41,613 bases of DNA from a bacterium (GTDB lineage: Bacteria > Calescibacteriota > Calescibacteriia > Calescibacteriales > Calescibacteriaceae): assembly GCA_030550715.1 (NCBI GenBank), contig JAUQOU010000015.1, positions 1 through 41,613 on the forward strand, written 5' to 3'. The position numbers and the translations under genes are program-made. The notes below the pieces were generated by a model that was not told the origin of the DNA, ran no database searches, and saw only the letters and a list, made by a program, of their open reading frames with translations. Positions 2,998-40,843 of the stretch are shown here, in pieces (position 1 is the stretch's first letter; every line of letters begins with the position of its first letter).

Positions 2998-3003
2998 TAA
3001 AAT
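2998..3003 (+). promoter_or_regulatory. Leaderless-type -10 box for the acylase gene
   Basis: TAAAAT followed by exactly 7 bases and then the ATG at 3011; no Shine-Dalgarno sequence. This places the expected transcription start at or next to the start codon. An alternative pair, TTGTAT (2945-2950) and TATAAG (2969-2974) with 18-base spacing, would give a leader of about 30 bases. Confidence 0.5.
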
Positions 3004-3010
3004 TTAAAAC

Positions 3011-5983
3011 ATGAAAAAGAGCGAGTTTTTTTCTCTGACATTAAAACTTTTTCTGCTTCCGGTTATTCTCATAAATTCATGCTCACGCGAGAAAAAGGGC
3101 TCATACTCTCTGCAAAATCCTGTCCATGTTATAATAGATAGATGTGGAACTCCTCACATATTTGCTGAAGATGATAAAGATGCTTTTTTTGTCTTCGGAT
3201 ATATTCAGGCACATTTCAGATTGTTTCAGATGGATCTTTCAAGAAGAGAAGCTATGGGAAGACTTGCAGAGATATTCCCAGATCAGCTCACTCAAGATAT
3301 CATCAACAGAATGTTAAGCTTCAAACTGATGGCAGAAATATCAAGAGAGTCGTTTGAGAAAACCGGCATGCTGAAAAAGATTCAAGCTTTCGTAGATGGT
3401 ATAAACAAATACATAGAAGATGCAAAAGCTGGACGAGAATTTGGCGGGATAAAAGCTCAAATTCCCCCTCAATACCAAGCACTAAAAATAGAACCAGAAC
3501 CATTTTATATTGAAGATGTTATAGCTGTTGGTAAAAAGAGAGCTTTTGACCTAGCAGGAGGAGGACTTATAGACCTCGCTTCAAAACTTATGCAACTTGT
3601 CTTCGGAGAAAACTTTGAAGAAAAATTCTCAATATCTTCCATAGAAAAAGTCAGTGTAGTTGATGACTTCCCGAAAACGAGATTATCTCCCTTTGAGAAC
3701 AACGAAAATATAGATCTCCAAGAACTAAAATCAGCAATTGAAAAAATATCGGAAAAGGTCAAAGGTTTAAAGAATTTGCTGTCTCTCAATTCAAATAACT
3801 TTGTCGTATCCGGTAGAATAACAAAATATGGATACCCAATTTTAGAAAATGACCCTCATCTTGCGGTCATATCTCCTTCTACATTCTTTCCATTTCAGAT
3901 AAACTCGCCTCAGTACTCAGGTTTTGGATTCACATTTCCGGGGATACCTATCGCTCTTGTAGGTGGAGGTAAAAATGTATGCTGGGGTGTGACAACAACC
4001 CTAATAGACGCAATGGATATCCTCTTCACTCCAATAATAGAAGAAAACGGAAAGTTTTTCATAATATGGGGTAAGAGAAAGTTAGAGGCGATTCCAAGAG
4101 AAGAAGAAATCTTTTACCTTGAGAACGGAGAAAAAAAATCTAAAAAGATAAAGTTTCTTTTCGTTCCAAATATAGGAATTGTCCTTGACGCAGGAAACAA
4201 AGAGGGATTCTCATCTATAATACCTTATCTTTTTGGTATAGTAGGAGTGCCGGGCGTAGAAGAAAGTATATCAAAAATACTCAAATACGTTTTTACTCTT
4301 GGCATGAATGTTGATAGAAAGGAAGCCGGAAATTTGGGAATAGTTCTGTTGTGGACAGGTTATAAGCCGACGAGCGAGTTTGCTGCTTTTTACGAGGTAC
4401 CATCTGCCGAAGATATTTTCTCAGCAATGATATTCTATAAATTTTTCCAAACTGGAATACAGAACTTCATAGTTGCAGATATAAAAGGGAATATAGGATA
4501 TTTCCCTCACGGTGAAATACCGATAAGACCTTCTGGAACAAAACCTTATCTCCCCGACCTCTCTGAAAATCTTTTCTGGCTCGGGAATATTGAACCCGAC
4601 TTTATTCCAAGAGCGGTAAATCCGCAATCTGGATACATCGTTACTGCAAACAACGATATAGTCGGGACATCGTTTGATAACAATCCTTTAAACGAGAGAT
4701 TCTATCTCGGTCCAGTTTACGATTTCGGATTCAGAGCAAAAAGAATAAGCGAGATGATAGAGGAAAACAGAGGCAAAATAGATAAGCTCGTCGCAGCGAC
4801 AATAATAAACGATGTTACCTCTCCTCTTGCAAGAAGGTTTGTAAAGGTACTTTTAAACTTTGTTTCTGAAAAAGATATTGAAAACCTTGATACCGATGAA
4901 AACAAAAAGGAATTTATGATTTTTATCTTGAACAAGCTGAAAAATTGGAACTTTGAAGAAGATGTGAACTCATTCGAACCACTCGCTTACGAGATGATAA
5001 TGCGAATGTCTTTCTCTAATTTCGCCTGGAAAAACTTCTCAAATAACTATGTGAAATATAAATTCAAAGATATAATTTTCTCAGCTCTGAAAGGGACAGA
5101 TTTAGAGAATTTAGCAGGAGCAATATATGAGATAGGGGCTGAACCGCTGAGCGAAGCTTTGTTTCAACTCTCCTCCGACCCGCAAGTTATTATCCGTTCA
5201 GTTCTGCCAATTCTTCAAGGAGAAAAAGGAACTCTTTGCGATAATAAAGAAGCAAAGAATTTATCAGATGAGAGGTTCATATTTTTAGGAGAAGATATAT
5301 GTCCAAAAGATGAATTTCTTTCCGCAATTTCAAAAACCGCAGATTACCTTATTGAGAATGCAAAAATTTGTAAGAGAAAAGAAGGTGATTTATGTGTAGA
5401 GTTTTTATGTAAAGATGGATTGCCAGAAAACTGTGTCCTCGGGGATTTCTCAGCAAAAAGATTCAACTACATAGCAGATATTCCCGGAAAAGAGAACTTT
5501 GAAGCGAAATATTTTGGGAGCTTATATTTCAGGAAATCAGGAGGAACAGCACTCGTATATGCAAGCGATATTGATACAGTAGAACTAGATAAAAGTAGCA
5601 AGGAGATAGTTTTCAAAAAACCTATTACAGAAAACGAGTTTGTAGCTTTTCTGCAGGGTGAAGGAGGTCAGACACTCAAATATATCTGCGAAGCCAAACC
5701 AGAAGGTGTTGAGATATGGTATGCTATACCAGGGGGAGTTGCAGATGACCCATCTTCTCTATACTTTGCAAACATGATTACCGCCTGGGCTTGTGCAAGA
5801 GAGTGGCTGAAAGGCGTAACACAAGGATACTGCTCTATACCGAAAGATATATTACCAGAAGATAAAGATTATTTCAAAATAGCATTTTCAAAGCTTGAAA
5901 CCGATTTTGAGAAACTCATAAGTTCAGATTACCACACTTCGCCATTATGTAACCAAAGGGAGATTTATCTCATTTTCAGATAG
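3011..5983 (+). CDS. Penicillin acylase family (Ntn-hydrolase) lipoprotein
   Basis: A 990-residue secreted amidohydrolase of the penicillin/acyl-homoserine-lactone acylase family. These are made as one chain and self-cleave in front of a catalytic serine. N-terminal signal with lipobox INSC (C24). The alpha-chain hallmarks follow: RCGTPHIFAEDDKDAFF (44-60), GYIQAHFRLFQMDLSRR (63-79) and GRLAEIF. The predicted nucleophile is S261 in LNSNNFVVSG, followed by the family's PILENDPHL (276-284). The beta-chain oxyanion Asn is visible in GYIVTANND (541-549). The residue before the nucleophile is Asn, where Gly is common. It is longer than usual (about 700-850), with a Cys-rich C-terminal part. Divergent from the MopE-like gene. 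Substrate cannot be read from sequence; lipopeptide, AHL or other amides are all possible. Confidence 0.88.
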   Translation: MKKSEFFSLTLKLFLLPVILINSCSREKKGSYSLQNPVHVIIDRCGTPHIFAEDDKDAFFVFGYIQAHFRLFQMDLSRREAMGRLAEIFPDQLTQDIINRMLSFKLMAEISRESFEKTGMLKKIQAFVDGINKYIEDAKAGREFGGIKAQIPPQYQALKIEPEPFYIEDVIAVGKKRAFDLAGGGLIDLASKLMQLVFGENFEEKFSISSIEKVSVVDDFPKTRLSPFENNENIDLQELKSAIEKISEKVKGLKNLLSLNSNNFVVSGRITKYGYPILENDPHLAVISPSTFFPFQINSPQYSGFGFTFPGIPIALVGGGKNVCWGVTTTLIDAMDILFTPIIEENGKFFIIWGKRKLEAIPREEEIFYLENGEKKSKKIKFLFVPNIGIVLDAGNKEGFSSIIPYLFGIVGVPGVEESISKILKYVFTLGMNVDRKEAGNLGIVLLWTGYKPTSEFAAFYEVPSAEDIFSAMIFYKFFQTGIQNFIVADIKGNIGYFPHGEIPIRPSGTKPYLPDLSENLFWLGNIEPDFIPRAVNPQSGYIVTANNDIVGTSFDNNPLNERFYLGPVYDFGFRAKRISEMIEENRGKIDKLVAATIINDVTSPLARRFVKVLLNFVSEKDIENLDTDENKKEFMIFILNKLKNWNFEEDVNSFEPLAYEMIMRMSFSNFAWKNFSNNYVKYKFKDIIFSALKGTDLENLAGAIYEIGAEPLSEALFQLSSDPQVIIRSVLPILQGEKGTLCDNKEAKNLSDERFIFLGEDICPKDEFLSAISKTADYLIENAKICKRKEGDLCVEFLCKDGLPENCVLGDFSAKRFNYIADIPGKENFEAKYFGSLYFRKSGGTALVYASDIDTVELDKSSKEIVFKKPITENEFVAFLQGEGGQTLKYICEAKPEGVEIWYAIPGGVADDPSSLYFANMITAWACAREWLKGVTQGYCSIPKDILPEDKDYFKIAFSKLETDFEKLISSDYHTSPLCNQREIYLIFR

Positions 5984-5998
5984 AAAATAAAATTTTAA

Positions 5999-6274
5999 TC
6001 AGTATTTTATCTCAAAACTCTTGAAAGTTCCCTGATATGGTAAAAATTCATACTCAATCTTTTCAACTCTTGCTGATGAAGGTCCTCTTTTAGCCCATTG
6101 AACGAGTTCTTCTAATTTTTCTTTTTCACCTTCTGCTAATATTTCAACTTCTCCGGTTTCAAGGTTTCTGACATATCCTGTGAGACCCAATTCTTTCGCC
6201 TTATAGTAAGTGCTTGCTCTGAATCCAACCCCCTGAACTAATCCATAAACCTTTATATATACTCTTGCTTTCAT
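5999..6274 (-). CDS. acyP: Acylphosphatase
   Basis: A 91-residue protein matching the whole small acylphosphatase fold, which hydrolyses acyl-phosphates such as acetyl- and carbamoyl-phosphate in the cytoplasm. The signature VYGLVQGVGFR gives the phosphate-binding loop and R19; GYVRNLETGEVEI supplies the catalytic N37. Length is typical. It follows the GcvH-like gene by 12 bases on the same strand, so they are probably cotranscribed. Its end lies 15 bases from the end of the convergent acylase gene, with no obvious hairpin between. The start is ATG at 6274. Confidence 0.95.
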   Translation of the reverse strand: MKARVYIKVYGLVQGVGFRASTYYKAKELGLTGYVRNLETGEVEILAEGEKEKLEELVQWAKRGPSSARVEKIEYEFLPYQGTFKSFEIKY

Positions 6275-6286
6275 ATAAAAATATTT

Positions 6287-6676
6287 TCAAGTTTCTTCAA
6301 TAAGCTGTTTATACTCTTCTGGCGTAAGAAGAGAAAAAGAAGACAAATCTTGATCCAGCTCTATTTCCATGAGCCACCCCTGATCATATGGGTCATCTAA
6401 AATGATTTCTGGATTTTCAATAACTTCTTTGTTTATTTTCTTTAATTTTCCGGAAACGGGCAGAATTATCTCTATTGAATCATCATCTTTCGTTATTATC
6501 TCTCCCACAACATCTCCTACATACAGTATAGAATTTTCATCACCATCTATGGTTATCTTTTCTATATCTTTATCTGATATAAGGTATTCAGTTATTCCTA
6601 CAAGGACTGTATTTTTACCTTTTGGCATTACCCATAAATGATCTTCTGAGTAGAATATTTTCTTTGATTTTTTCAT
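6287..6676 (-). CDS. GcvH-like (glycine cleavage H-protein family) lipoyl-domain protein, atypical lipoylation site
   Basis: A 129-residue GcvH-fold protein. KIFYSEDHLWVM matches the KYSxEHEWV start of H-proteins, and PVSGKLKKIN, EIILDDPYDQGWLMEI and LTPEEYKQLIEE match the C-terminal half. H-protein normally carries lipoate on the Lys of ESVKA. Here that region reads GEIITKDDDSIEIILP, with no ESVKA; only one Lys (about residue 63) lies near the expected place, in an acidic setting. It may be a lipoate-free paralogue or a carrier with a changed site. No gcvT or gcvP is in the window. Start chosen at ATG 6676 because GGAGG lies 8 bases upstream; a longer frame from TTG 6706 would include the ribosome-binding site as coding sequence. 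Confidence 0.8.
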   Translation of the reverse strand: MKKSKKIFYSEDHLWVMPKGKNTVLVGITEYLISDKDIEKITIDGDENSILYVGDVVGEIITKDDDSIEIILPVSGKLKKINKEVIENPEIILDDPYDQGWLMEIELDQDLSSFSLLTPEEYKQLIEET

Positions 6677-6684
6677 AATCACAT

Positions 6685-6689
6685 CCTCC
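6685..6689 (-). promoter_or_regulatory. Ribosome-binding site deciding the GcvH-like start
   Basis: GGAGG on the minus strand with 8 bases to ATG 6676. It supports the shorter start over TTG at 6706, and is one of the few clear Shine-Dalgarno sequences in the window. Confidence 0.8.
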
Positions 6690-6857
6690 GTTCCTCTAAT
6701 ATTCAAAAATCTTCAGAAAAATTAAGATTTGGTCAAAATAGATTTTCTTTTTAATTTTTGTATCCAAAAAAATTTTTTTCAAAAAATCTTGGTTTTTGTT
6801 AATATTTTATTTTCCATTTTGATTTTGTAAAATATAAAAAATTTTCTGAATATGCAA

Positions 6858-6866
6858 TAATATAAT
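6858..6866 (+). promoter_or_regulatory. Leaderless-type -10 box for secG
   Basis: Overlapping hexamers TAATAT (6858-6863, 7 bases from ATG) and TATAAT (6861-6866, 4 bases from ATG). There is no Shine-Dalgarno and no clear -35 box in the AT-rich stretch upstream. The 7-base spacing matches that at other genes here. Confidence 0.5.
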
Positions 6867-6870
6867 CTTC

Positions 6871-7167
6871 ATGATAGTGATTTTGTGGATACTTGAAATA
6901 ATAGTTGGAATTTTGCTTGTTATATCTGTTCTTCTGCAGGTTCGGGGTGGAGATGCAGGAGCTTTTTTTGGTGGGACCCAATCTATCTTCGGTCCAAGAG
7001 GGCCTACTACAATTTTGGAGAAAATGACCTATGGTCTCATAGGCGCCTTTTTCATCATAACTCTGCTCATATCTAAACTCTCAAGCTCAGAAAGAATAGC
7101 TCCAACTCAAGAAATTCCTTCTGCACCTTCCCCCGAAGAAGTATTGCCAGAATCTGTCACAAAATAG
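6871..7167 (+). CDS. secG: Protein translocase subunit SecG
   Basis: A 98-residue membrane protein with two transmembrane segments (about residues 3-22 and 52-68). They are joined by the SecG signature loop LLQVRGGDAGAFFGG followed by FGPRGP. SecG sits beside SecYE in the inner membrane and helps SecA-driven export. The tail (about 70-98) is hydrophilic and Pro/Glu-rich, as usual. The gene stands alone, divergent from the GcvH-like/acyP pair, and ends 22 bases before the convergent GtrA-like gene. Length and loop are typical, so the assignment is firm. Confidence 0.93.
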   Translation: MIVILWILEIIVGILLVISVLLQVRGGDAGAFFGGTQSIFGPRGPTTILEKMTYGLIGAFFIITLLISKLSSSERIAPTQEIPSAPSPEEVLPESVTK

Positions 7168-7189
7168 AAATAAAATTACACCAAGATTT

Positions 7190-7669
7190 TTATCTGAAAA
7201 TAAATTTCCTTGAAATCATAAAACTTATAAAACCCACAATAACAGAAGTCGTAAGTTGAGAGATAACCTTAGGTATATGCAATACTTCAACCTGGAAATA
7301 AAGGAGCGAAGAGAAAAGGGGAGTATTGAACACAGAAAGAGCAAAAAATTTCAGATACCTTTTGAGCCCATCATAAGACCTTATCTTGAAGGTTGAGTAA
7401 TTTTTGAAGGTGAATTTTCTGTGTAGTATAAAGTTTTGAGTCATAGCGAAAAAGCCGGCAATAGGACCAGCTATCATATACCAAACTTTCACAACATAAA
7501 CAAGAAATGAAAACAATGCGAGGTTTGAAGTTATTCCCGCTACTCCTACCGAACCATATTTTAGCGCTTGAAATATAAAGTCCCTGTTGAAGAGCTGGAA
7601 AATTTCTGTTTTCTTATGAACCGAATCAGATTTACTCTGTGAAATCTGATTTTCAGGTTCTTGAAACAT
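7190..7669 (-). CDS. GtrA-like family membrane protein
   Basis: A 159-residue protein with four predicted transmembrane segments in the GtrA arrangement. It starts QALKYGSVGVAGITSNLALF (residues 35-54), has the conserved NFILHRKFTF between helices 2 and 3 (about 88-97), and ends SFMISRKFIF. GtrA-family proteins are thought to move lipid-linked sugars or to sit with glycosyltransferases at the inner membrane; exact roles vary. A hydrophilic N-terminal extension of about 30 residues precedes helix 1. No glycosyltransferase gene is adjacent. ATG start without a Shine-Dalgarno; TATAAA lies about 26 bases upstream. Family sure, function open. Confidence 0.85.
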   Translation of the reverse strand: MFQEPENQISQSKSDSVHKKTEIFQLFNRDFIFQALKYGSVGVAGITSNLALFSFLVYVVKVWYMIAGPIAGFFAMTQNFILHRKFTFKNYSTFKIRSYDGLKRYLKFFALSVFNTPLFSSLLYFQVEVLHIPKVISQLTTSVIVGFISFMISRKFIFR

Positions 7670-7726
7670 AAATGAGTTTTTGCACCGTTTTTATAGCTCA
7701 GGTAATCAGAAACAAAGATATGATCA

Positions 7727-9505
7727 TCAAGATGAAGAGAATATTATTGAATCTATTTCGTTAGATGTAAGGGTTTCTTTTTCAAAGAGCATTGACGCAA
7801 GCTTATGAAGTTTATCTATATTTTCTGATATAATGCTCTTTGCCTTCGCATAGCACTGTGAGATTATGTTCATAACTTCTTGATCTAGTTTTCTTGCGGT
7901 TTCTTCGGAAATATCCTCGTGCCTTGCGATCTCTCTTCCCAAAAATATATACTCTTCTTTTGATTTAAAAGCTATTGGTCCAAGAGAACTCATTCCCCAT
8001 TCATAAACCATTTTCCTTGCCAGGTCTGTGGACTTTTCTATATCGTCGGCTGCGCCGGTGGATATTGTTTCAAACACTATTTCCTCGGCTGCTCTACCAC
8101 CGAGCAAAACCGTTATCTTCCTGTAAAGATAATCTCTGTCTATCACATACATATCTTCATCTGGTATCTGAACTGTAACACCTAGGGCTTTTCCTCTTGG
8201 AATTATGCTCACACGCTCAACTTTATCTGGTCCCTGAATTTTCGCAACAAGAGCATGCCCTGCCTCATGGTAAGCTATTTTTTTCTTCTGCTCATCTGTC
8301 AAAAAGAATGTTTTTCTCTCAACCCCCATTATCATCTTATCTCTTGCTCTCATCAGAAGTTCTTCATCAACAAAAGGTTTTTTCTCTCTTATCGCTATTA
8401 TCGCAGCTTCGTTTATCATACTTTCAATATCTGCTCCGGAAAACCCCGGAATTGACCTCGCTATCTTCTCAACATCTATATTCGGGTCAGATTTAACCCT
8501 TTTGAGATGCACTTTGAGTATTTCTATTCTCCCTTTAAGGTCTGGAAGAGAAAAGTATATTTTTCTGTCAAATCTACCGGGACGCAAAAGAGCTGGGTCC
8601 AAAATATCTGGTCTATTTGTAGCTGCTATCACAACTATTGGTTCTCCTCTTGATTCTATTCCATCAAGTTCAACAAGAAGCTGATTTAGAGTTTGCTCTC
8701 TTTCGTCGTGTCCTCCTCCTATTCCCGTTCCTCTTCCTCTTCCTACAGCATCAATTTCATCGATGAAGATTATACAAGGAGCATTTTTTCTCGCTCTCTC
8801 AAAAAGGTCTCTCACACGCGAAGCGCCTACTCCGACAAAAAGTTCTATAAAAGATGAGCCGACCTCATAGAAAAAAGGAACCCCAGCTTCATTCGCTATT
8901 GCCTTTGCAAGAAGTGTCTTTCCAGAACCCGGAGGTCCTATAAATATAACTCCTTTTGGTGGTCTTATACCGAACTCCTTGAACTTATCAGGATTTTTCA
9001 GATAATCAATTATGTCTTTTACTTCCTCCTTCACTTCGTCCAAACCCGCAACATCATCAAAAGTCACTTTATTGTCTTTCCTCGGAACAAAGATCTTCGC
9101 TTTTGACCTTGTAAAAGATATAGCTCTTGAGTTTCCTCTCTCAATTCCCCTTATAAAACTGAAAAGAAGGAAAATTATCAGAAGAGTTGGGACCCAAGCT
9201 ATAAGTAAATCTCTCACCCACGATGTTTTTTCTTCTGGAATTATCGTGACTTTGACATTCTTTTCAGAGAAAGTTTTCAGAAGCTCCCACTCAACGGGAC
9301 CGTAGGTTTTGAAAGCTCTTCCGTCTTTGAATTCTCCGTCTATTCTGTTTCCTTTTACCCTTACCTCTTTTATATTTTCAATATCTTTTATCAGGTCTGT
9401 GAATGAAATAAATTCTACTTTCTGGGATTCCTGTATATCAACTATTGCTCTGTAAAGCAGTATCGCTCCCGTGAAAATAAGTATCCACAAAACAAGATAT
9501 TTCAT
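7727..9505 (-). CDS. ftsH: ATP-dependent zinc metalloprotease FtsH
   Basis: A 592-residue membrane AAA+ protease that extracts and degrades membrane and soluble proteins. The N-terminus has transmembrane helix 1 (about 3-20), a short periplasmic domain, and helix 2 (about 100-118). The AAA domain has Walker A GPPGSGKT (190-197), Walker [10 protein letters not shown] (244-252) and the second region of homology [19 protein letters not shown]. The zinc protease site is HEAGH (413-417). The C-terminal tail is short. A single full-length copy with ATG start; no Shine-Dalgarno is visible. It lies downstream of fliN on the same strand with 74 bases between, so it may be separately transcribed. Confidence 0.97.
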
Positions 9506-9579
9506 ATTTTTTCTTACACTTAAAGTTAATTTAATTTACCATTATTTTGAGATTTTTAGGATAAATTTCTGGTTTGAAT

Positions 9580-9993
9580 TTATATTTTCCCGAGCTTCTT
9601 TATTCTTTCCTCTGGGCTTATTATATCAATTATTCTCACACCAAACCTATCGCCAACAAGAATCACCTCACCTCTTGCTATATGTCTGCCGTTCACAAGA
9701 ATTTCAACCGGTTCATTCTCCTGTTTATCAAGTTCTATTGTTGAACCCTGAGTGATTTGTAGAAGGTCTCCAAGTAGCATTCTTGTTCTTCCTATTTCCA
9801 CCGACACTTCAAGCGGTATATCAAGAAGCGTTCTTAAAACCTCTGGAATTCCTTCTTCTTCTCTTTTTCTTCTTAATTCTTTTTTTTCCTCTTCTTTTTT
9901 CTCTTCTTCGGTTACTTCATTTATTGCTTTTGCAAGAGCTTCTTTCATCTCATCTGATAAACTCTCTATACCTTCTGTTTCCTTTTCTATCAT
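9580..9993 (-). CDS. fliN: Flagellar motor switch protein FliN
   Basis: A 137-residue protein. Its C-terminal half is a SpoA (FliN/FliM C-terminal) domain: LLDIPLEVSVEIGRTRM (58-74), LLQITQGSTIELD, GRHIARGEVILVGDRFGVRI. FliN forms the C-ring of the flagellar switch with FliM and FliG and binds export components. The N-terminal third is a very charged Glu/Lys-rich stretch (about 1-50), likely helical or disordered. No fliM or fliG is adjacent; flagellar genes here are scattered. Divergent from efp, with a leaderless-type -10 box. A type III secretion SctQ-like role is less likely because flaG and fliS are also present in the window. Confidence 0.9.
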   Translation of the reverse strand: MIEKETEGIESLSDEMKEALAKAINEVTEEEKKEEEKKELRRKREEEGIPEVLRTLLDIPLEVSVEIGRTRMLLGDLLQITQGSTIELDKQENEPVEILVNGRHIARGEVILVGDRFGVRIIDIISPEERIKKLGKI

Positions 9994-10001
9994 GATATAT
10001 T

Positions 10002-10007
10002 ATTTTA
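10002..10007 (-). promoter_or_regulatory. Leaderless-type -10 box for fliN
   Basis: TAAAAT on the minus strand, 8 bases before ATG 9993; no Shine-Dalgarno sequence. Confidence 0.45.
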
Positions 10008-10074
10008 ATGATTTCGGACAATTTTTTCTTTTTCTTCCCTTTTAAAAGTTTAATTCAATTATTTTTTTATTATC

Positions 10075-11821: not shown

Positions 11822-11890
11822 TTTATCAAATATTTATTGAGATATTTTATAAAACCCCTATAAAGCTTTGAGGATTTCAAATCAGATACT

Positions 11891-11918
11891 GAAGTAAAAA
11901 GCATTCTCTTTTAACTTC
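11891..11918 (-). other. Hairpin at the end of the DUF59/SufT-type gene
   Basis: An inverted repeat of 11 + 11 bases (one mismatch, 6-base loop) begins at the stop codon of the upstream gene. It is not followed by a T-run, so it is more likely a weak terminator or an RNA-stabilising stem than a strong intrinsic terminator. Confidence 0.35.
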
Positions 11919-12219: not shown

Positions 12220-12300
12220 ATTTATTTATTTTTATAATTTTTTCTTTTGATTTGAATTTTATCTGATTTCTACGAAAAAACAATCTAAAAGAGAAAAAAA

Positions 12301-13098: not shown

Positions 13099-13099
13099 T

Positions 13100-14812: not shown

Positions 14813-14818
14813 TATATT
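14813..14818 (+). promoter_or_regulatory. Leaderless-type -10 box for rluD
   Basis: TATATT followed by 7 bases and ATG 14826. There is no Shine-Dalgarno sequence and no clear -35 box. It lies in the 175-base divergent region between tRNA-Ser and rluD, which otherwise shows only AT-rich sequence. Confidence 0.5.
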
Positions 14819-20388: not shown

Positions 20389-20396
20389 AAAAATAA

Positions 20397-20402
20397 ATTA
20401 TG
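20397..20402 (-). promoter_or_regulatory. Leaderless-type -10 box for the permease operon
   Basis: CATAAT on the minus strand, 8 bases before GTG 20388; no Shine-Dalgarno. It supports GTG as the true start. Confidence 0.4.
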
Positions 20403-20437: not shown

Positions 20438-20443
20438 TAAAAT
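20438..20443 (+). promoter_or_regulatory. Leaderless-type -10 box for the SpoIID-like gene
   Basis: TAAAAT followed by 7 bases and ATG 20451; no Shine-Dalgarno sequence. Confidence 0.5.
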
Positions 20444-21351: not shown

Positions 21352-21357
21352 TAAAAT
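21352..21357 (+). promoter_or_regulatory. Leaderless-type -10 box for the acyltransferase gene
   Basis: TAAAAT followed by 7 bases and ATG 21365; no Shine-Dalgarno sequence. This suggests the gene has its own promoter although it follows the SpoIID-like gene. Confidence 0.5.
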
Positions 21358-27632: not shown

Positions 27633-27642
27633 ACTGAAAAAT

Positions 27643-27649
27643 CCTCCTT
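27643..27649 (-). promoter_or_regulatory. Ribosome-binding site of rpoA
   Basis: AAGGAGG, complementary to the anti-Shine-Dalgarno tail of 16S rRNA, 10 bases before ATG 27632. It shows that this organism does use Shine-Dalgarno initiation for some genes. Confidence 0.85.
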
Positions 27650-27706
27650 GTGGTATTTTTTAAAGGTAATGAGGTAGGGAAAAAATTTGAAATTTTTCTG
27701 AAAAAT

Positions 27707-27741: not shown

Positions 27742-27861
27742 AGCTCAGGAGCCATACCGGGGGTGAAACCCGCCTTCCCATTCCGAACAGGACCGGGAAA
27801 CCCCCCAGGGCCGATGATACTGCGTCCGCACGGGCGTGGGAAAGTAGGTCGCTCCTGGGCT
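27742..27861 (+). rRNA. rrf: 5S ribosomal RNA
   Basis: A 120-base 5S rRNA. The ends AGCTCAGGAGC and GCTCCTGGGCT pair over 11 positions (one G-U) as helix I. The conserved interior CCCATTCCGAACAGG, GGGCCGATGATACTGCG and GAAAGTAGGTCGC matches loops B, C and E and helices II-V of bacterial 5S. It stands alone; 16S and 23S are not next to it. It lies 109 bases from the divergent rpoA and 8 bases from the end of the convergent metallo-beta-lactamase gene. It has its own promoter, and a T7 run at its 3' end. Confidence 0.93.
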
Positions 27862-33496: not shown

Positions 33497-33504
33497 AACA
33501 AAAA

Positions 33505-33510
33505 AAGATA
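33505..33510 (-). promoter_or_regulatory. Possible leaderless-type -10 box for the LVIVD lipoprotein gene
   Basis: TATCTT on the minus strand, 8 bases before ATG 33496; no Shine-Dalgarno. It lies in the 90-base gap after the upstream lipoprotein gene, so the gene may be transcribed both with and without that gene. Confidence 0.35.
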
Positions 33511-33586
33511 AAGATTTGGCGAATGCTTGAACTTTTTCTGCAATAATTTTCGCTCACAGCTAACAGAAATTCTATTTGATAAAGTA

Positions 33587-35995
33587 TCATCTATATGGAT
33601 AGTTTTCAATAAATCCTGTAAGCGCTATACCTTTCCATATTGTGCGGAATAAAAGAGCATTATCTGTAAGAACTTCTCCTTTCTTATTTTTCACAACTCC
33701 TCCTTTCCCTTTATATAACCTTATAACTCCGGAAAATGTAGGGTCTGGCAAAAGCAGGTAGATGAGGTCTATAACATCGTCTCTATCTCCTGAATAAACT
33801 CCCGTTTCACAGATTATTCCACCGGGACCTATGGAGTTCGCTGGATCAACTTTCCCATCTGGCCAGTAGTGTTCGACATCCATAACATCAAATTTATTAT
33901 TTCCAATCACAGAATCTCCACCTGTTCCTCTTTTACCGTTCAAAATTCCGTAGTCATCATCCCACGGTTCAGTTATATCACCTTTATCTGGGATTTTATT
34001 TCCGTTCTTATCTTTCCAATCAAAGAACATATTGCCTTCTGTTCCGAAGTCATTATTTTCAACAGTAGAGTTGATAAAGTTTTTGCAGTCACGAGGGGAA
34101 GAAGGGGTAATACCCTGTTTATACTCGCTATATGCTTTATAAGCTTCTGAGTTAGCACATTTGCCGTTATCGTTAGTATCAACACCATCTTGATTATTTG
34201 AGGGTGGGTTAAAATCATCTTCATCTGGATCTGGATTTGAAAAAGGATGAAAAGTATCATACTCCCATGAAAATTTACCATCGTAGCCGGTATCTTTGAA
34301 CGGTTCTGTATCTCTCTGAACAATAATTGATTTTGTATTCGGGTCCCAAAGAGGCAACATATCTCGCAGCGGGGTTGGATTTATGAAAAATTCCCACAAT
34401 CTGACTTCCGGGAAAGAAATTCCCTGAGAGCAGAGCAAATCACGGAGGGCTTCGTTTGTGCTTCCCACAAGCTTTCCTATATCAAGTATTCCACCTTTGA
34501 CATTATCGGCTAAAATCTGGAACAGCTTTCTTTCAAACAAAATGGTATATACAGTTTGCCCGAAGTTCCCAGAAAAAGCTAATTTTATTCCCTGAGAGCT
34601 AAAGAGCTGAACTTTCTCTGTCCCTATCATCTCTCCTATGTCGTATCTGTTGTTTCCTTCTCCTTCGTCAGGGGAAGACCAGGCGCCATTCCATTTTCCG
34701 TTTCCATTTATATCAAGATAGGGTTCTCCATCATCGTATTTTCCATTGTTATTTATATCTGCGAACGGTTCAACGGGATCACCTGGGCAGACATTATCTT
34801 TCCCGCAATCCCAATACCTTATTATATCATCTGATTGGTCGTCTGTTTCCACTCTGAGCGAGTCAAGCATTCTTTGGAGGTTGATAAGACCGTTATAGAT
34901 AGATGATTGAGCGCTTTTCAGACGCTCTCCCGCTTCGGAAGACAATCCCAAAAAAGCAGGATTGCTCATAAGTTCTTCTATAAAAATATAAGATATAGAA
35001 TTGAATATGCTCACCCTCTCGCCGTTGGAGACCCTACTTACAACCTGCTCTGGTAACCTCAAAATAAATTCTATTGAACCATTATAAGCTAAAAGTACAT
35101 CAAATACTCCCGAAACGAATTCAACGAGAGAAGTAAGGAAATAAAGATCTGTTATATCGTGTTCTCCACTGAGATCCACAGAAACATTTTCAACTTGTTC
35201 GGTTTCCGGAAAATCTTTTATAACATACACAAAAACTCTCTTTACTCTGAAAGAGAAGTCAGAAGGTATTGAGCCCGAATTTATAACACCTTCAAGGACC
35301 GTTTGAGCTGGTTTAACTGCTCCATCTACAAGCAGACGAATATCTGAAGGAGTTAATTTACCTAAAAAAAGGTCTATGATAAGTTTATTAAGCTGAGAAA
35401 GTATATATATTACTTTTCCAAGAGTGAGAGAATATACCGCTTCAACATCACAGGCATTTTCCTCATAAACATATTTTTCAAGAGTAAGAACTGAGTCCAG
35501 AACCTTGTTAATATTTTTCTCTGACTCGGCATACTCTGCCCCTATTATTATAATGTCGTTCTTGTAGATATCTATTGCAGATTGAACCTCCTGACTTCTT
35601 TGAACTTCATTTTTAACAACAGAAATTTTCAATTTTTTCGCTTCCAAATCTTTGTTTTCATTTGAAGAAATGACCTTGAAATCAACTTCTCTTTCACCTT
35701 CTGAACAGAAAAGGAGATTCACATAGGGGGAAGTAGATATAACTTTGTCTCCCATTTTCCACTCAAAAAGGCAATCTGAACAGTTTTTAAAATCGCCATC
35801 GTATTTTATTAGAAAACTCTGCCCTACCTTCACTTCAACTGAACTAGATACTGGCACTGTTTCGGGATTCTTTTTGTTCGGATTTTTTACAGCCAAAAAT
35901 TGAACTTTTTGTCCGTTTTTACTATCGCTACAAAACGAAAATAAAAAAGATAAAGAAAATAAAATCACAACCCTCTTGAAAAAAATTCTACGCAT
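33587..35995 (-). CDS. Large secreted lipoprotein with PKD-like domain and EF-hand-like Asp-rich loops
   Basis: An 802-residue exported protein. MRRIFFKRVV begins a signal peptide ending in FSFC (C22). Residues about 52-127 look like a PKD/Ig domain (VKVGQSFLIKYDG, WKMGDKVISTSPYV). A long helical middle follows, to about 395. The C-terminal part carries Asp/Asn/Gly loops of the calcium-binding DxNxNGxxD type: ADINNNGKYDDGEPY and LDINGNGKWNG (about 412-438), with more near VDTNDNGK and WKDKNGNKIPDKGD. ATG 35995 is chosen because TAAAAT lies 7 bases upstream; ATG 36013 and TTG 36043 would extend the protein. It begins the leftward run that includes the LVIVD lipoprotein. Function unknown. Confidence 0.75.
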   Translation of the reverse strand: MRRIFFKRVVILFSLSFLFSFCSDSKNGQKVQFLAVKNPNKKNPETVPVSSSVEVKVGQSFLIKYDGDFKNCSDCLFEWKMGDKVISTSPYVNLLFCSEGEREVDFKVISSNENKDLEAKKLKISVVKNEVQRSQEVQSAIDIYKNDIIIIGAEYAESEKNINKVLDSVLTLEKYVYEENACDVEAVYSLTLGKVIYILSQLNKLIIDLFLGKLTPSDIRLLVDGAVKPAQTVLEGVINSGSIPSDFSFRVKRVFVYVIKDFPETEQVENVSVDLSGEHDITDLYFLTSLVEFVSGVFDVLLAYNGSIEFILRLPEQVVSRVSNGERVSIFNSISYIFIEELMSNPAFLGLSSEAGERLKSAQSSIYNGLINLQRMLDSLRVETDDQSDDIIRYWDCGKDNVCPGDPVEPFADINNNGKYDDGEPYLDINGNGKWNGAWSSPDEGEGNNRYDIGEMIGTEKVQLFSSQGIKLAFSGNFGQTVYTILFERKLFQILADNVKGGILDIGKLVGSTNEALRDLLCSQGISFPEVRLWEFFINPTPLRDMLPLWDPNTKSIIVQRDTEPFKDTGYDGKFSWEYDTFHPFSNPDPDEDDFNPPSNNQDGVDTNDNGKCANSEAYKAYSEYKQGITPSSPRDCKNFINSTVENNDFGTEGNMFFDWKDKNGNKIPDKGDITEPWDDDYGILNGKRGTGGDSVIGNNKFDVMDVEHYWPDGKVDPANSIGPGGIICETGVYSGDRDDVIDLIYLLLPDPTFSGVIRLYKGKGGVVKNKKGEVLTDNALLFRTIWKGIALTGFIENYPYR

Positions 35996-36002
35996 AATAG
36001 AA

Positions 36003-36008
36003 ATTTTA
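36003..36008 (-). promoter_or_regulatory. Leaderless-type -10 box for the PKD/EF-hand-like lipoprotein gene
   Basis: TAAAAT on the minus strand, exactly 7 bases before ATG 35995. It is the main argument for that start over the two earlier in-frame starts. Confidence 0.5.
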
Positions 36009-36081
36009 ACCATAAAACAAATCACAAAGTAAATTTCTCGCAAAGAGAATTTTAAAATATTAGATAAGAAACTCTCATCAA

Positions 36082-36087
36082 GATAAT
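36082..36087 (+). promoter_or_regulatory. Leaderless-type -10 box for the L,D-transpeptidase gene
   Basis: GATAAT followed by 6 bases and ATG 36094; no Shine-Dalgarno sequence. Confidence 0.4.
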
Positions 36088-36093
36088 TCTCGT

Positions 36094-36570
36094 ATGATAA
36101 TAGTCATTTCGTTAGAGAGACAGAAACTTTATGTAATTGATGGTGATAAAATCATAAAAGAGTATCCTGTCTCTACCTCAAAGTATGGGAAGGGAAATGA
36201 GAAGGATTCAGAAAAAACTCCAACAGGAATTCACAGAATATATAAGAAAATAGGAGAAGGAATGTCTCCTGATACTTACTTTATTGGAAGAGTACCTTAC
36301 ACAAAGGAAGAAGCAGAAAGAAAATTCGGAGAGCTAAAAGATAAAATAACCGCAAGAATAATCTGGCTTGAAGGTTGCGAAGAAGGAATAAACAAAGGTA
36401 AAAACAAAGAAGGAAAAATCGTAGATACAAAAGAAAGATACATTTACATACACGGAACTCCAGAAGATATATCTTCACCATCTTCAAGAGGGTGTATAAG
36501 AATGAGAAATGAAGATATTATTGAGCTTTTTGATATGGTCAGGGAAAACGACCTTGTGCTGATATTCTGA
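36094..36570 (+). CDS. L,D-transpeptidase (YkuD domain), no visible signal peptide
   Basis: A 158-residue protein consisting almost wholly of a YkuD domain. IIVISLERQKLYVIDGDKII (2-21) is the usual opening, then PVSTSKYGKG and KTPTGIHRI. The catalytic signature is YIYIHGTP (H120) and SSRGCIRM, with nucleophile C134 and R136. YkuD enzymes make 3-3 cross-links in peptidoglycan or attach proteins to it using the active Cys. The first strand of the domain starts at residue 2, so there is no signal peptide in the frame. It either uses another export route or acts on cytoplasmic precursors. It ends 11 bases from the convergent DUF4416 gene. Confidence 0.9.
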   Translation: MIIVISLERQKLYVIDGDKIIKEYPVSTSKYGKGNEKDSEKTPTGIHRIYKKIGEGMSPDTYFIGRVPYTKEEAERKFGELKDKITARIIWLEGCEEGINKGKNKEGKIVDTKERYIYIHGTPEDISSPSSRGCIRMRNEDIIELFDMVRENDLVLIF

Positions 36571-36581
36571 ACCGAAAAAAC

Positions 36582-37136
36582 TTATTTCAGTGAATATTTT
36601 TCTTTTTTGAATTGGGAAATTTGGGCTTTATAGATTTTTCTTATCTGCAAAAGGATACTATCGTATAGACCTTCCTTGAAATCGGGAAACGTCCAGGGAA
36701 AAGTAAGAAATTTTCCTTTTTCATATCGTAGAACAAGATCTGCCCAAACACCATCGGAGAGGTATATTTTACATCCTCCCGGCTTACACGTAGCTAAAAC
36801 AACCTTGTAAAAATCAATATATCCCGGGTCTAAATTCACCTTTCTCTTGCCAAATTCATCTCGTAGCTTATCTTCAATCTCAATACATTTTATTTTAATT
36901 TGTGTGAGCTTATCTGGTTTCATAAGTTTCTCAAATGAGAAGAAAACCCTTTTTATGTTATCTCCCATTTCGTCCTTGTAGTAATCTGTCACAGTAAATG
37001 GTACGGATTGACTTTCAAAATCAAAATCACCAAAATTTTTCTGAATTTCCTTCTTAGCGGAGATGAGTTTTTCCTCGTCTGAAAACAGAACAGCAACAAA
37101 GAACTTGACAAAATCAGGTTCTTTCGGATGAGCCAT
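36582..37136 (-). CDS. DUF4416 family protein
   Basis: A 184-residue soluble protein of the DUF4416 family. It shows DYYKDEMGDNIKRVFFSFEKL (about 51-71), RKVNLDPGYIDFYKVVLAT (97-115) and the C-terminal WTFPDFKEGLYDSILLQIRKIY. The conserved Glu, Asp, His/Arg-type residues have no known reaction. Length is typical for the family. The ATG lies inside the end of the upstream NAT-like gene (23-base overlap), so the two are translated together. No function can be given. Confidence 0.85.
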   Translation of the reverse strand: MAHPKEPDFVKFFVAVLFSDEEKLISAKKEIQKNFGDFDFESQSVPFTVTDYYKDEMGDNIKRVFFSFEKLMKPDKLTQIKIKCIEIEDKLRDEFGKRKVNLDPGYIDFYKVVLATCKPGGCKIYLSDGVWADLVLRYEKGKFLTFPWTFPDFKEGLYDSILLQIRKIYKAQISQFKKEKYSLK

Positions 37137-37914
37137 ATCCTAACTTTGCACAAACCTTCTTAAAAACTTCTTTTTTTATACCTATTTTCTCTACAAAATT
37201 TTCAAGCTCAAAAATACTATCTAACTTTATGTTTTTTGAAACCCCGTCTTTTATGATATGAACAAAGTTATCTCTAAGATAAATCAGCTTGTCTTTTAAT
37301 AATTTAACAACTACTATGTGGTTCATCATTTCAAACTCAAATGTTTTCTCCCATGCAGAAAGGAAATCATCAAAAGAGATTTTCTCAAGTTTAACAGAAT
37401 ATCTGAATTTTCTATGTCCATTTTCAAAAATAGTAAAAACATCTATTCTTTTACCATCGTTACTCCACAAAAATTCAAGTTCTCCCTGAACGGTCTTAAC
37501 TCTGATTTTACTTTGTGATATATCAACGGGGAAAAATATTGAAAACCCTATATCACCAAGATATAATTTATCTCGGATTTGAGTTATGACGACACAGTGA
37601 GAAGATGGGGCGTAAGTTCTGTCGGCAAGAACGATATATGAGTTGAAGCCAAGAAAATCAAGAACTCTTTTGAGAAAGTACGTCAGAGGGAAACATGTTC
37701 CTCCCGTGCCAAATTCAAGGTATCCCCTCATTATATCAAAGGGACTTGCAAACTTTTCTTTTATATAGTTATGTTTTGTCAGGTTTTCATATGGGATATT
37801 AGAGAACGCAAGAAAGACCTTTTTCAAAAGCTGTTGTTCTCTATCTTTACTCCACTCTTTAATAAAGTGAGAGAAGAAAAGCTCAATTCCTTTATCTTCG
37901 TTTCGAAAAATCAC
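37114..37914 (-). CDS. Arylamine N-acetyltransferase-like protein
   Basis: A 266-residue protein with the NAT Cys-His-Asp triad layout. IPYENLTKHN (40-49) matches the family's PFENL. GTGGTCFPLTYFLKRVL gives C74 (family RGGxCxExN; here Phe-Pro replaces the usual Glu or Phe-Glu), APSSHCVV gives H106, and LYLGDIGF gives D121. NATs move acetyl from acetyl-CoA to arylamines, and relatives cyclise polyketides. The changes around the Cys leave the substrate uncertain; a transglutaminase-like peptidase role is an alternative. GTG start 37914, with AT-rich sequence upstream and no Shine-Dalgarno. Coupled to the DUF4416 gene. Confidence 0.75.
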   Translation of the reverse strand: MIFRNEDKGIELFFSHFIKEWSKDREQQLLKKVFLAFSNIPYENLTKHNYIKEKFASPFDIMRGYLEFGTGGTCFPLTYFLKRVLDFLGFNSYIVLADRTYAPSSHCVVITQIRDKLYLGDIGFSIFFPVDISQSKIRVKTVQGELEFLWSNDGKRIDVFTIFENGHRKFRYSVKLEKISFDDFLSAWEKTFEFEMMNHIVVVKLLKDKLIYLRDNFVHIIKDGVSKNIKLDSIFELENFVEKIGIKKEVFKKVCAKLGYGSSERT

Positions 37915-37974
37915 AATGAAAAATTAATTATAATGAGTACTTTTTGATAAACAGGAGAAAATAAATTTGCACAT

Positions 37975-39495
37975 CTAAAATTGCTGGTCAATATTGAAGA
38001 AGCTCTCTGCTTTTCTCATCTGCAGTGCTTCGAGGATATGTTCTGATTTTATTCTATCGCTGTGGTCTAAATCGGCTATTGTGAGAGCCATTTTGAGAAC
38101 TCTGAAGACCGCCCTTGCTGAAAGTGAAAACTTCAAAATAGCGTTTTTCATTATCTCTTCACATTTTGAATCAAGCTTGAAAAACTCATTTTGTAAAGAA
38201 GGAGGGATTTCAGAATTCAAGAAAAAACCAAAGTTTTTAAATCTTCTCATCTGCATTTCTCTGACTTCTGCAACAATATCTCTCAACTTCTCTGCCTCCG
38301 ATGTCTGAGATGTTCTATTTGATAAAATATCTTCTGGTTCAAGAGCAGGAACTTCAAGGTACATATCAAATCTATCAAGAAGAGGACCTGATATTTTTGA
38401 AATATACTTTTTGATCTGGGCAAAAGTACATCTGCATTCTTTTTTAGGGTTCTTGAAATTACCACACGGGCAGGGGTTCATAGCAGAAATAAGCTGGAAG
38501 CTTGCGGGAAATGTAACAGTTCTTTGAGCACGAGAAATAGTAACTTTCTTTTCTTCTATGGGTGTTCTCAGTGATTCAAGAGTTTGACGTCTGAATTCCG
38601 GGAGTTCGTCAAGGAAAAGAATGCCTCTGTGAGCCAGAGATACTTCTCCGGGTTTTGGAATAGAACCACCGCCTATCATTGCGACATCTGATATTGTATA
38701 GTGCGGTGAGCGAAAAGGTCTTACTCTGTGTTCTCTTTTCACTCCCGCAACCGAGTATATTTTCATAACTTCTATCTCCTCGTCATCAGTGAGTGTTGGG
38801 AGGATTGAGAGCATAGATTTTGCGAGAAGGGTCTTTCCTGCACCGGGAGGACCTATCATGATAACATTGTGTCCACCACACGCCGAGATCAAAAGCGCCC
38901 TTTTTATAAAGTCATGCCCCCTTATATCGTCAAATGTCACTTCAAAAACTTTTGGAGGAATCTCGGAAAAGCTCCTGCTCTTCACTTCCTCGAGATGTCC
39001 CGAACCTTTAAGGAAATTCACAAGATTTTTGAGGTGATCTACATAAAAACCTTTTACTCCTATGTATTCTACCTCTGAATTCTCATTTGATATTATGAGC
39101 TCTACTGATTTCTCTTTGGCTAAAACCGCAATAGGGATAACTCCATTTACACCCTTGACAAATCCATCAAGAGATAGCTCTCCAACAAAAATAAACTTTT
39201 TAGGTAAAGATAGCTTTTTCTCAGAAGCTAAAATTCCTATGGCTATTGGGAGATCATAAATTGACCCTTCTTTCTTTATATCCGCGGGAGCAAGATTAAC
39301 AGTTATTCTTTTGAGAGGGAAATCAAACCCAGAATTTTTTATAGCACTTCTCACTCTATCTCTGCTTTCTTTTACAGCAGAATCAGGAAGTCCCACAATA
39401 TTGAAAGAAGGTATGCCGGGAGATATATCTACTTCTACTTCAACCTCGTACGCATCTATTCCGAAGACACCAGCAGAAAAAACCTTTGAAACCAT
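37975..39495 (-). CDS. comM: ComM/YifB family Mg chelatase-like AAA+ protein
   Basis: A 506-residue protein with the full ComM layout. The N-terminal ChlI/Lon-like domain has IPSFNIVGLPDSAVKESRDR (28-47) and ITVNLAPADIKKEGSIYDLP. The AAA+ core has Walker A GPPGAGKT (215-222), Walker B-like GILFLDELPEF, and a Cys cluster NPCPCGNFKNPKKECRC. The C-terminal helical domain ends SARAVFRVLKMALTIADL. ComM is a hexameric helicase that helps branch migration during natural transformation. It is a lone gene, divergent from hisS, with a leaderless-type box. Confidence 0.93.
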   Translation of the reverse strand: MVSKVFSAGVFGIDAYEVEVEVDISPGIPSFNIVGLPDSAVKESRDRVRSAIKNSGFDFPLKRITVNLAPADIKKEGSIYDLPIAIGILASEKKLSLPKKFIFVGELSLDGFVKGVNGVIPIAVLAKEKSVELIISNENSEVEYIGVKGFYVDHLKNLVNFLKGSGHLEEVKSRSFSEIPPKVFEVTFDDIRGHDFIKRALLISACGGHNVIMIGPPGAGKTLLAKSMLSILPTLTDDEEIEVMKIYSVAGVKREHRVRPFRSPHYTISDVAMIGGGSIPKPGEVSLAHRGILFLDELPEFRRQTLESLRTPIEEKKVTISRAQRTVTFPASFQLISAMNPCPCGNFKNPKKECRCTFAQIKKYISKISGPLLDRFDMYLEVPALEPEDILSNRTSQTSEAEKLRDIVAEVREMQMRRFKNFGFFLNSEIPPSLQNEFFKLDSKCEEIMKNAILKFSLSARAVFRVLKMALTIADLDHSDRIKSEHILEALQMRKAESFFNIDQQF

Positions 39496-39501
39496 AAAAA
39501 A

Positions 39502-39507
39502 ATTTTA
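39502..39507 (-). promoter_or_regulatory. Leaderless-type -10 box for comM
   Basis: TAAAAT on the minus strand, 6 bases before ATG 39495. It lies in the 70-base region shared with the divergent hisS promoter. Confidence 0.45.
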
Positions 39508-39551
39508 GAGCAAAAAATGATTTATCAAAAATGATATCAAATTTACGCAGA

Positions 39552-39557
39552 TAAAAT
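39552..39557 (+). promoter_or_regulatory. Leaderless-type -10 box for hisS
   Basis: TAAAAT followed by 8 bases and ATG 39566; no Shine-Dalgarno sequence. Confidence 0.45.
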
Positions 39558-39565
39558 TTTTCTTT

Positions 39566-40843
39566 ATGCCAAGAGTTTCCGGAACAAGAGATATTTTCGG
39601 AGAAGAGATTAAAAAAATCAACTTCTTAGAAAGCAAAGCTCGTGAGTTTTTCTCAAAACTTGGATTTGAAGAGATAAGAACACCAATTTTAGAATATTCA
39701 GAGATATTTCAAAAATCGCTCGGGGAAGGTTCAGAAATCATAATGCACCAGATGTATGTTTTTGAAGATAAAGATGGAAAAGAAGTAGCACTGAGACCCG
39801 AAGGAACGGCACCGGCTGTAAGATTCTACATAGAAAACCTGATGAATAAAAAACCAAGAACAAAACTACTTTATATAGGTCCCATGTTCAGAAGAGAACG
39901 TCCCCAGAGAGGAAGATTCAGACAGTTCCATCAGATAGGATGCGAGATGTTCGGATTTGACTCGCCCGAAAGCGATTTCTACCTCATCTCCACCCTGAGC
40001 TTCTTCCTGAAAGAGATAGGAGTAGAACACAAAATTGATATAAACTCTGTTGGATGTCCAATCTGCAGACCAAAATATTCACAAAAACTCAAAGAGTTCT
40101 TTTCAAATAAACCACTGTGTTCAGATTGTCAGGTGAGGTTGAAGATAAATCCTATGAGAATTCTTGACTGCAAAAAAGATATCCAAATAGTAAATGAAGC
40201 ACCAGATATAAGAGAATTCCTGTGTGAAAAATGTAGATCATCACTTAAAAATGTAGTTGATAATCTGAAAAAATACAAAATAAATTTTGAAGAAAACCCC
40301 AAAATAGTCAGAGGACTTGAATACTACACAGGAGTTGTATTTGAAGTTTTCTTTCCAGAAGATAATTTGGCAATAGCAGCAGGAGGAAGATACGATCTCC
40401 TCGTTGAATCTATGGGAGGGAATCCAACCCCCGCTCTTGGATTTGCAATAGGAACCGAAAGATTAGCAAACATACTTATGAAAAAAATAAAAGAAGATGA
40501 AAAGAGAGATGGAATATTTATATGCTATACACAAGAAGGGAAAGAAAAAGCTTTTGAGTTCTTCACAAAGATAATATCTGACCTTCATAAATTTGAAAAC
40601 ATTCAAAAAGAAGAAAACCAAAAAATGCTAAATGAACTAATCAACGAAATAAAAAATGGTAGAATAGATATAAGTGTTGAAGGGCAAAAGAGCTTGAAAT
40701 CTCAAATAAGATACGCCGATTCTCAAAATTTCAAATTCGTTATCATCTTCGGGAAAGATGAAGTTATAAATAATTCTTTCTCGCTGAAAAAACTTGAAAG
40801 CTCAGAACAAATAATGGTTAGCATAAAAGAAATTCTAAGCTGA
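39566..40843 (+). CDS. hisS: Histidyl-tRNA synthetase
   Basis: A 425-residue class II synthetase. Motif 1 region IRTPILEYSEIFQKSLGEGS, motif 2 LRPEGTAPAVRFYIEN (with R83 of RFRQFHQIGCE following later), and the His-A sequence GLEYYTGVVFEVF are present. AAGGRYDLL and ALGFAIGTERL complete the catalytic core. The insertion domain has the common Cys set (CPIC, CSDC, CEKC). In the anticodon-binding domain about 24 extra, charged residues (near 345-370) lie before GQKSLKSQIRYAD. Otherwise length and motif order are normal. Monocistronic, ending 41 bases from the convergent nuclease gene. Confidence 0.96.
   Translation: MPRVSGTRDIFGEEIKKINFLESKAREFFSKLGFEEIRTPILEYSEIFQKSLGEGSEIIMHQMYVFEDKDGKEVALRPEGTAPAVRFYIENLMNKKPRTKLLYIGPMFRRERPQRGRFRQFHQIGCEMFGFDSPESDFYLISTLSFFLKEIGVEHKIDINSVGCPICRPKYSQKLKEFFSNKPLCSDCQVRLKINPMRILDCKKDIQIVNEAPDIREFLCEKCRSSLKNVVDNLKKYKINFEENPKIVRGLEYYTGVVFEVFFPEDNLAIAAGGRYDLLVESMGGNPTPALGFAIGTERLANILMKKIKEDEKRDGIFICYTQEGKEKAFEFFTKIISDLHKFENIQKEENQKMLNELINEIKNGRIDISVEGQKSLKSQIRYADSQNFKFVIIFGKDEVINNSFSLKKLESSEQIMVSIKEILS

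What the first reader, a model, noticed from the sequence alone, without database searches (positions are those of the whole stretch)
2998..39566. Widespread leaderless-type start sites: a -10 box 6-8 bases before the start codon and no Shine-Dalgarno
At least eleven genes share one pattern, a TAAAAT/TATAAT-like hexamer exactly 6-8 bases before the start: acylase (2998-3003), secG (6858-6863), fliN (10002-10007), rluD (14813-14818), permease-operon GTG (20397-20402), spoIID-like (20438-20443), acyltransferase (21352-21357), LVIVD gene (33505-33510), PKD lipoprotein (36003-36008), L,D-transpeptidase (36082-36087), comM and hisS (39502-39507, 39552-39557). Five have 7-base spacing with TAAAAT, TATATT or TAATAT. 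Since the -10 to +1 distance is about 7, transcription should begin at the start codon. rpoA, rplQ, flaG and the GcvH-like gene have real Shine-Dalgarno sequences, so two initiation modes coexist. Similar TANNNT-at-ATG promoters are known in Deinococcus.
Basis: partly seen in the sequence, partly recalled or inferred. Interest (0 to 1): 0.75.

Follow-up and report, generated by a model that had tools for sequence, protein, structure and literature searches.

The report
Widespread leaderless genes in hot-spring bacterium
In this uncultured hot-spring bacterium and its relatives, about half of the genes that head a transcription unit seem to have their promoter pressed against the start codon, so that the message begins at or within about three bases of the first codon and needs no ribosome-binding sequence; this is a known mode of gene expression, here very common in an isolated, AT-rich lineage where it does not seem to have been described.

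Summary
All twelve hexamers are at the stated places, with no Shine-Dalgarno (SD) in front of any of the starts. Ten are strict TANNNT; the other two are CATAAT and GATAAT. In 638 kb of the same genome, ATG genes that head a transcription unit carry TANNNT at -15..-12 in 35% of cases, against 14% expected (p = 4e-17). The peak corresponds to spacers of 6-9 nt. The same peak occurs in three relatives (G001, G003, G004). It is absent from five comparison genomes and is found, sharper, at -12 in Thermus. A mixture model assigns 56% of own head-of-unit genes to the -10-at-start class (4-12% after shuffling) and 21% to SD. The hexamer tends to be kept at the same place in orthologues about 55% identical. 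An upstream model that omits the hexamer still places the promoter at -13/-14 in genomes it was not trained on. These genes alone show helically phased A-tracts registered to the box. SD genes instead have TANNNT enriched at -30..-26. The best reading is true promoters giving leaderless or near-leaderless (0-3 nt) mRNAs beside SD-led ones, as in Deinococcus-Thermus. No 5' ends were mapped. New member of a known kind, in an isolated lineage (bacterium HR19 group).

The parts
2998..3003 (+). -10 box TAAAAT, 7 nt before ATG 3011 (penicillin amidase/acylase)
6858..6863 (+). -10 box TAATAT, 7 nt before ATG 6871 (secG); orthologue in G001 has TACATT at the corresponding place in otherwise diverged DNA
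10002..10007 (-). -10 box TAAAAT, 8 nt before ATG 9993 (fliN)
10060..10065 (+).
14813..14818 (+). -10 box TATATT, 7 nt before ATG 14826 (rluD-like)
20397..20402 (-). CATAAT 8 nt before GTG 20388 (permease operon); an overlapping strict TANNNT (TAATTT) lies at -12 (20395-20400)
20438..20443 (+). -10 box TAAAAT, 7 nt before ATG 20451 (SpoIID-domain protein)
21352..21357 (+). -10 box TAAAAT, 7 nt before ATG 21365 (acyltransferase)
33505..33510 (-). -10 box TATCTT, 8 nt before ATG 33496 (LVIVD-repeat protein)
36082..36087 (+). GATAAT (not strict TANNNT), 6 nt before ATG 36094 (L,D-transpeptidase)
39502..39507 (-). -10 box TAAAAT, 6 nt before ATG 39495 (comM)
39552..39557 (+). -10 box TAAAAT, 8 nt before ATG 39566 (hisS); orthologue in G004 has TATTTT at the corresponding place
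27633..27652 (-). region with Shine-Dalgarno AGGAGG just upstream of rpoA ATG 27632; SD conserved in G003 (contrast class)

Best explanation
The hexamers are the -10 elements of housekeeping-sigma promoters whose whole architecture is registered to the start codon: an A/T-tract region about 25-40 bp upstream of the -10 box, a weak A-rich region where a -35 would sit, then TAAAAT, 6-9 nt, and ATG or GTG. RNA polymerase would start at the start codon or 1-3 nt before it, giving leaderless or near-leaderless mRNAs. Ribosomes would then start on the 5'-terminal AUG/GUG without SD pairing. A smaller class of genes uses normal SD pairing (intact anti-SD in 16S), with the promoter typically about 15 nt further upstream. 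Shown here: the sequence pattern, its position, its concentration at unit heads, its tendency to be conserved, and its register with upstream promoter-like DNA. Inferred: the transcription start and 5'-AUG translation.
For: Positional peak vs background, resampling and operon-internal genes. Three-component mixture: T10 0.56/0.59/0.76/0.72 in own/G003/G004/G001; shuffles of own, G003 and G004 give 0-0.15; L. salivarius control equals its shuffles with SD 0.85; Thermus TA...T at -12. Comparators G011, G014, G016, G027 and L. salivarius show no excess. Orthologues with conserved ATG, own vs others: 13 of 23 keep TANNNT in the same 4-nt window vs 14 of 62 without it (p = 0.004), seven other windows show nothing, and only 1 of 23 has SD in the orthologue. 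Hexamer-excluded upstream PWM, trained on other genomes, peaks at -14/-13 in held-out T10 genes and also in own and G004 genes with neither SD nor TANNNT. Phased A-tracts registered to the hexamer: power 0.254 vs 0.019 at control hexamers, 0 of 500. SD genes have TANNNT enriched at -30..-26 (29% vs 16%, p = 2e-5). GTG starts are 46% T10 and 3% SD. Alpha-CTD present in rpoA.
Against: No transcript 5' ends. Spacing is spread over four positions, not one as in Thermus, so many mRNAs could carry 1-3 nt leaders. Residual T10 signal in operon-internal genes (weight 0.27-0.37) is not fully explained. No canonical TTGACA at 16-18 bp. T at -1 is equally common in SD genes, so it is no evidence for a start at A. 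Starts were taken as the 5'-most ATG by a simple gene caller; with orthologue-supported starts the excess is smaller (about 27-29%). The G003 'none' class does not show the -13/-14 peak.
Confidence: 0.87

Rival explanations
1. The TAAAAT-like element is an AT-rich, non-SD ribosome-binding element (as reported for the FCB group) acting in the mRNA, and transcription starts further upstream.
For: It sits at the same distance as SD. AT-rich RBSs are known (PMC9581028). Some signal remains in operon-internal genes.
Against: Signal halves in operon-internal genes (42% to 22%, p = 7e-7). Conserved T1, A2 and T6 are the -10 signature. It is registered with upstream phased A-tracts and with an upstream-only model, a DNA-level property. 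TANNNT is displaced to -30..-26 in SD genes. In D. radiodurans the equivalent motif was tested and is a promoter, not an RBS (PMC12340547).
Confidence: 0.08
2. Real promoters, but the mRNAs mostly carry very short leaders of 2-5 nt rather than none; initiation is by near-leaderless or 70S mechanisms.
For: The own-genome mode at -14/-15 puts the A of ATG 9-10 bp downstream of the -10 box, against 7 in Thermus. Spacing differs between own and G003 (p = 0.04).
Against: G003 peaks at -12/-13, the Thermus-like place. GTG starts are T10-rich while TTG starts are less so (46% vs 26%), as expected if polymerase starts on the purine of the codon; small numbers.
Confidence: 0.3
3. Artefact of AT-rich composition, in-frame TAA/TAG stops upstream of the first ATG, or start miscalling.
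For: Genome GC is 36%. Some hits at -15 and -12 are in-frame TAA.
Against: Resampled and position-shifted background 13-15% vs 29-40% in the two head-of-unit classes. Hits that are not in-frame stops still reach 29% and 23%. The peak includes the out-of-frame positions -14 and -13. AT-rich controls (L. salivarius 32% GC, G014 35%, G011 38%) show no excess. Conservation in orthologues.
Confidence: 0.02

Closest known systems
Leaderless -10-motif (TANNNT at the ORF) genes of Deinococcus-Thermus (PMC12340547, PMC3160421)
   Same: TANNNT just upstream of ATG/GTG, no SD, coexisting with SD-led genes, common genome-wide; Thermus pTT27 run through the same pipeline shows it
   Different: Low GC (36%), middle bases A-rich (TAAAAT), spacing 6-9 nt spread over four positions rather than 6-7, phased A-tracts upstream, unrelated lineage
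Leaderless genes of Actinobacteria (Mycobacterium, Streptomyces; PMC3898074, PMC4633059)
   Same: Leaderless mRNAs beside SD-led ones, about a fifth of genes or more; ATG or GTG at the 5' end
   Different: High-GC lineage with mapped 5' ends; here there are no RNA data and the share by sequence is higher
AT-rich non-SD initiation of the FCB group (PMC9581028)
   Same: AT-rich signal near the start, few SD genes
   Different: Here the signal has the -10 signature, is concentrated at unit heads, and SD with intact anti-SD is still used

Membership tests
Bacterial leaderless (TA-led) gene set | TANNNT core about 12 nt upstream of the start, above shuffled expectation | tested here: met
   35% vs 14%, p = 4e-17; same in three relatives
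Bacterial leaderless (TA-led) gene set | No SD in these genes, SD present in others | tested here: met
   SD in 22% of unit-head genes; SD and TANNNT mutually exclusive, though partly because they occupy the same place; intact anti-SD
Bacterial leaderless (TA-led) gene set | Signal concentrated at the first gene of a transcription unit | tested here: met
   42% vs 22% among SD-less genes, p = 7e-7; residual signal inside operons
Bacterial leaderless (TA-led) gene set | Transcript 5' end at the start codon | not testable with these tools
   no RNA data
Bacterial leaderless (TA-led) gene set | Translation starts on a 5'-terminal AUG/GUG | not testable with these tools
   needs ribosome profiling or reporters
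Deinococcus-Thermus-type sharp spacing | One preferred spacing (6-7 nt) | tested here: not met
   spread over -15..-12 in own, G003 and G004; Thermus sharp at -12
FCB-type AT-rich RBS | Element equally present in operon-internal genes | tested here: not met
sigma70 promoter with canonical -35 | TTGACA 16-18 bp upstream of the -10 box | tested here: not met
   no enrichment over control hexamers; A-rich region and T/A tracts instead

The most novel reading that the evidence does not exclude
This isolated hot-spring family has made the start-codon-registered promoter its default: more than half of transcription-unit heads are leaderless, and SD genes carry only a minimal leader of about 15 nt. 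Promoter recognition relies on phased A/T-tracts (UP-like, alpha-CTD) instead of a -35 box, with a relaxed -10-to-start spacing. It would be among the most leaderless-rich bacteria known and an AT-rich model for this state.
Probability: 0.4. Interest if true: 0.55.

Novelty: new member of a known kind. Interest (0 to 1): 0.42.

Why it matters
Leaderless expression is well documented in Deinococcus-Thermus, Actinobacteria and archaea. Finding it as the commonest mode in another isolated, thermophilic, AT-rich bacterial lineage supports repeated or ancient use of the mode. It also means that gene starts in such MAGs should be called with a promoter model: standard callers trained on SD will misplace many starts. 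The phased A-tract architecture gives a specific, testable picture of promoters that work without a clear -35.

Tried and rejected
A canonical TTGACA at 16-18 bp: no enrichment; bipartite promoters show a slight excess that does not concentrate at the start codon. Extended -10 (TG): none. Zero-order de novo motif search on SD-less genes was swamped by poly-A in own DNA, so I moved to first-order backgrounds and a three-component mixture. T at -1 as a mark of transcription start: rejected, equally frequent in SD genes. A first orthologue test with a strict gapless rule had too few pairs and was redone. A literal match to the E. coli UP consensus: the mean score peaks at a plausible place, but strong matches are not more frequent, so I claim only phased tracts. 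Loss of ribosomal protein S1: rejected, an S1-repeat protein is present.

Full report
WHAT WAS CHECKED. The window is contig 47 of a 1.95 Mb draft genome. Its family holds four other genomes in the collection and no further relative below the rank of domain was offered, so it is an isolated lineage. One close relative (rpoA 98%) is 'bacterium HR19', a metagenome bin that NCBI taxonomy leaves unclassified; the hot-spring origin is my own knowledge of the HRbin series. The 16S 3' end reads GGATCACCTCCTTTCT, an intact anti-Shine-Dalgarno. Controls: Thermus pTT27 as positive, L. salivarius pMP118 as AT-rich SD-using negative, and 100 kb from each of four unrelated genomes. Genes were called with a simple length and codon-use caller and 5'-most ATGs were used. 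Transcription-unit heads are genes with a divergent neighbour or a gap of at least 50 nt.

THE TWELVE SITES. Ten are strict TANNNT; the permease operon has CATAAT (with an overlapping TAATTT at -12) and the L,D-transpeptidase GATAAT. In the window 11 of 20 ATG heads have TANNNT at -15..-12 against 14% expected (p = 2e-5), and 1 of 9 operon-internal genes.

GENOME-WIDE. Divergent heads: 40% vs 15% background and 15% resampled (p = 2e-12). Heads with gaps of at least 50 nt: 29% vs 13%. Overlapping operon genes: 7% vs 6%. Pooled over the family, SD-less heads 42% vs operon-internal 22% (p = 7e-7). L. salivarius, G011, G014, G016 and G027 show no excess; Thermus shows it at -12. A mixture of background, -10 and SD components gives -10 weights of 0.56, 0.59, 0.76 and 0.72 in own, G003, G004 and G001 (shuffled controls 0-0.15 for the first three) and SD weights of 0.17-0.28. 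L. salivarius gives SD 0.85 and a -10 weight equal to shuffles. The consensus is TAAAAT at -15..-12. For comparison, Zheng et al. (PMC3160421) report 46% of all genes as the bacterial maximum, in D. radiodurans; their measure is over all genes, mine over unit heads, so the figures are not directly comparable.

IS IT A PROMOTER. Four lines of evidence. (a) Conservation: among orthologues with an aligned ATG, own genes with the hexamer have it in the same four-nucleotide window of the relative in 13 of 23 cases, against 14 of 62 for genes without it (p = 0.004); seven other windows show nothing; SD class is conserved too (p = 4e-8). In the window, secG (G001) and hisS (G004) keep it in otherwise diverged upstream DNA. 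(b) A weight matrix of the 37 bp upstream of the hexamer, excluding the hexamer, trained on the other genomes, places the promoter at -14/-13 (own), -13/-12 (G003) and -13/-14 (G004) in held-out genes, and again at -14/-13 in own and G004 genes with no SD and no exact TANNNT. So more genes than the strict count probably belong; the G003 'none' class does not show this. (c) AAA tracts near -39, -27 and -19 and a T-tract near -35 relative to the hexamer are in register: spectral power at about 10 bp is 0.254 against 0.019 at other intergenic TANNNT and 0.024 with jittered anchors, 0 of 500 each. This resembles a UP-type region; alpha-CTD is present. (d) In SD genes TANNNT is enriched at -30..-26 instead (29% vs 16%, p = 2e-5): the same element moved by the length of a short leader.

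MECHANISM. Sigma and RNA polymerase bind a promoter whose -10 box ends 6-9 nt before the start codon, so the RNA begins at the codon or up to about three bases before it. Such an mRNA has no room for SD and would be started by ribosomes on its 5'-terminal AUG or GUG. GTG starts are 46% -10-type and only 3% SD, TTG 26%, which fits initiation on a purine. The transcription start and the mode of translation are inferred, not shown.

WHAT REMAINS OPEN. The spacing is looser than in Thermus and differs slightly between own and G003 (p = 0.04). A residual signal inside operons (weights 0.27-0.37) may be internal promoters, upstream stop codons (TAA) or some translational role. The within-gene exclusion of SD and TANNNT is partly mechanical because they occupy the same place. 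The gene caller is simple; with orthologue-supported starts the share is about 27-29%.

VERDICT. The finding is real and its interpretation is supported. The phenomenon is known in bacteria (PMC3160421, PMC12340547; 21.6% of bacterial species predicted leaderless in PMC9581028). What is added is a strong case in an isolated AT-rich lineage with a loosely spaced, A-tract-phased promoter. I found no paper describing it there, but the library searched is partial.

Noticed in passing
window 27744-27860 (+): A 5S rRNA gene lies alone between rpoA and the next gene, while the 16S gene is on another contig (C58); the rRNA genes may be unlinked.
   Followed up: no
window 35995-36043 (-): The PKD-type gene is probably started at ATG 35995 (TAAAAT 7 nt upstream), not at the longer TTG frame at 36043; likewise the GcvH-like gene at ATG 6676 (SD upstream) rather than TTG 6706.
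   Followed up: partly
upstream regions of SD genes, pooled over the family: SD genes have TANNNT enriched at -30..-26, which suggests minimal leaders of about 15 nt that just hold the SD.
   Followed up: yes
upstream regions of -10-type genes, pooled over the family: A-tracts in helical phase (near -39, -27, -19 from the hexamer) with a T-tract near -35, in place of a canonical -35 box.
   Followed up: yes
GTG-start genes, pooled over the family: GTG starts are almost never preceded by SD (3% of 72) and 46% carry the -10 box at -15..-12.
   Followed up: partly
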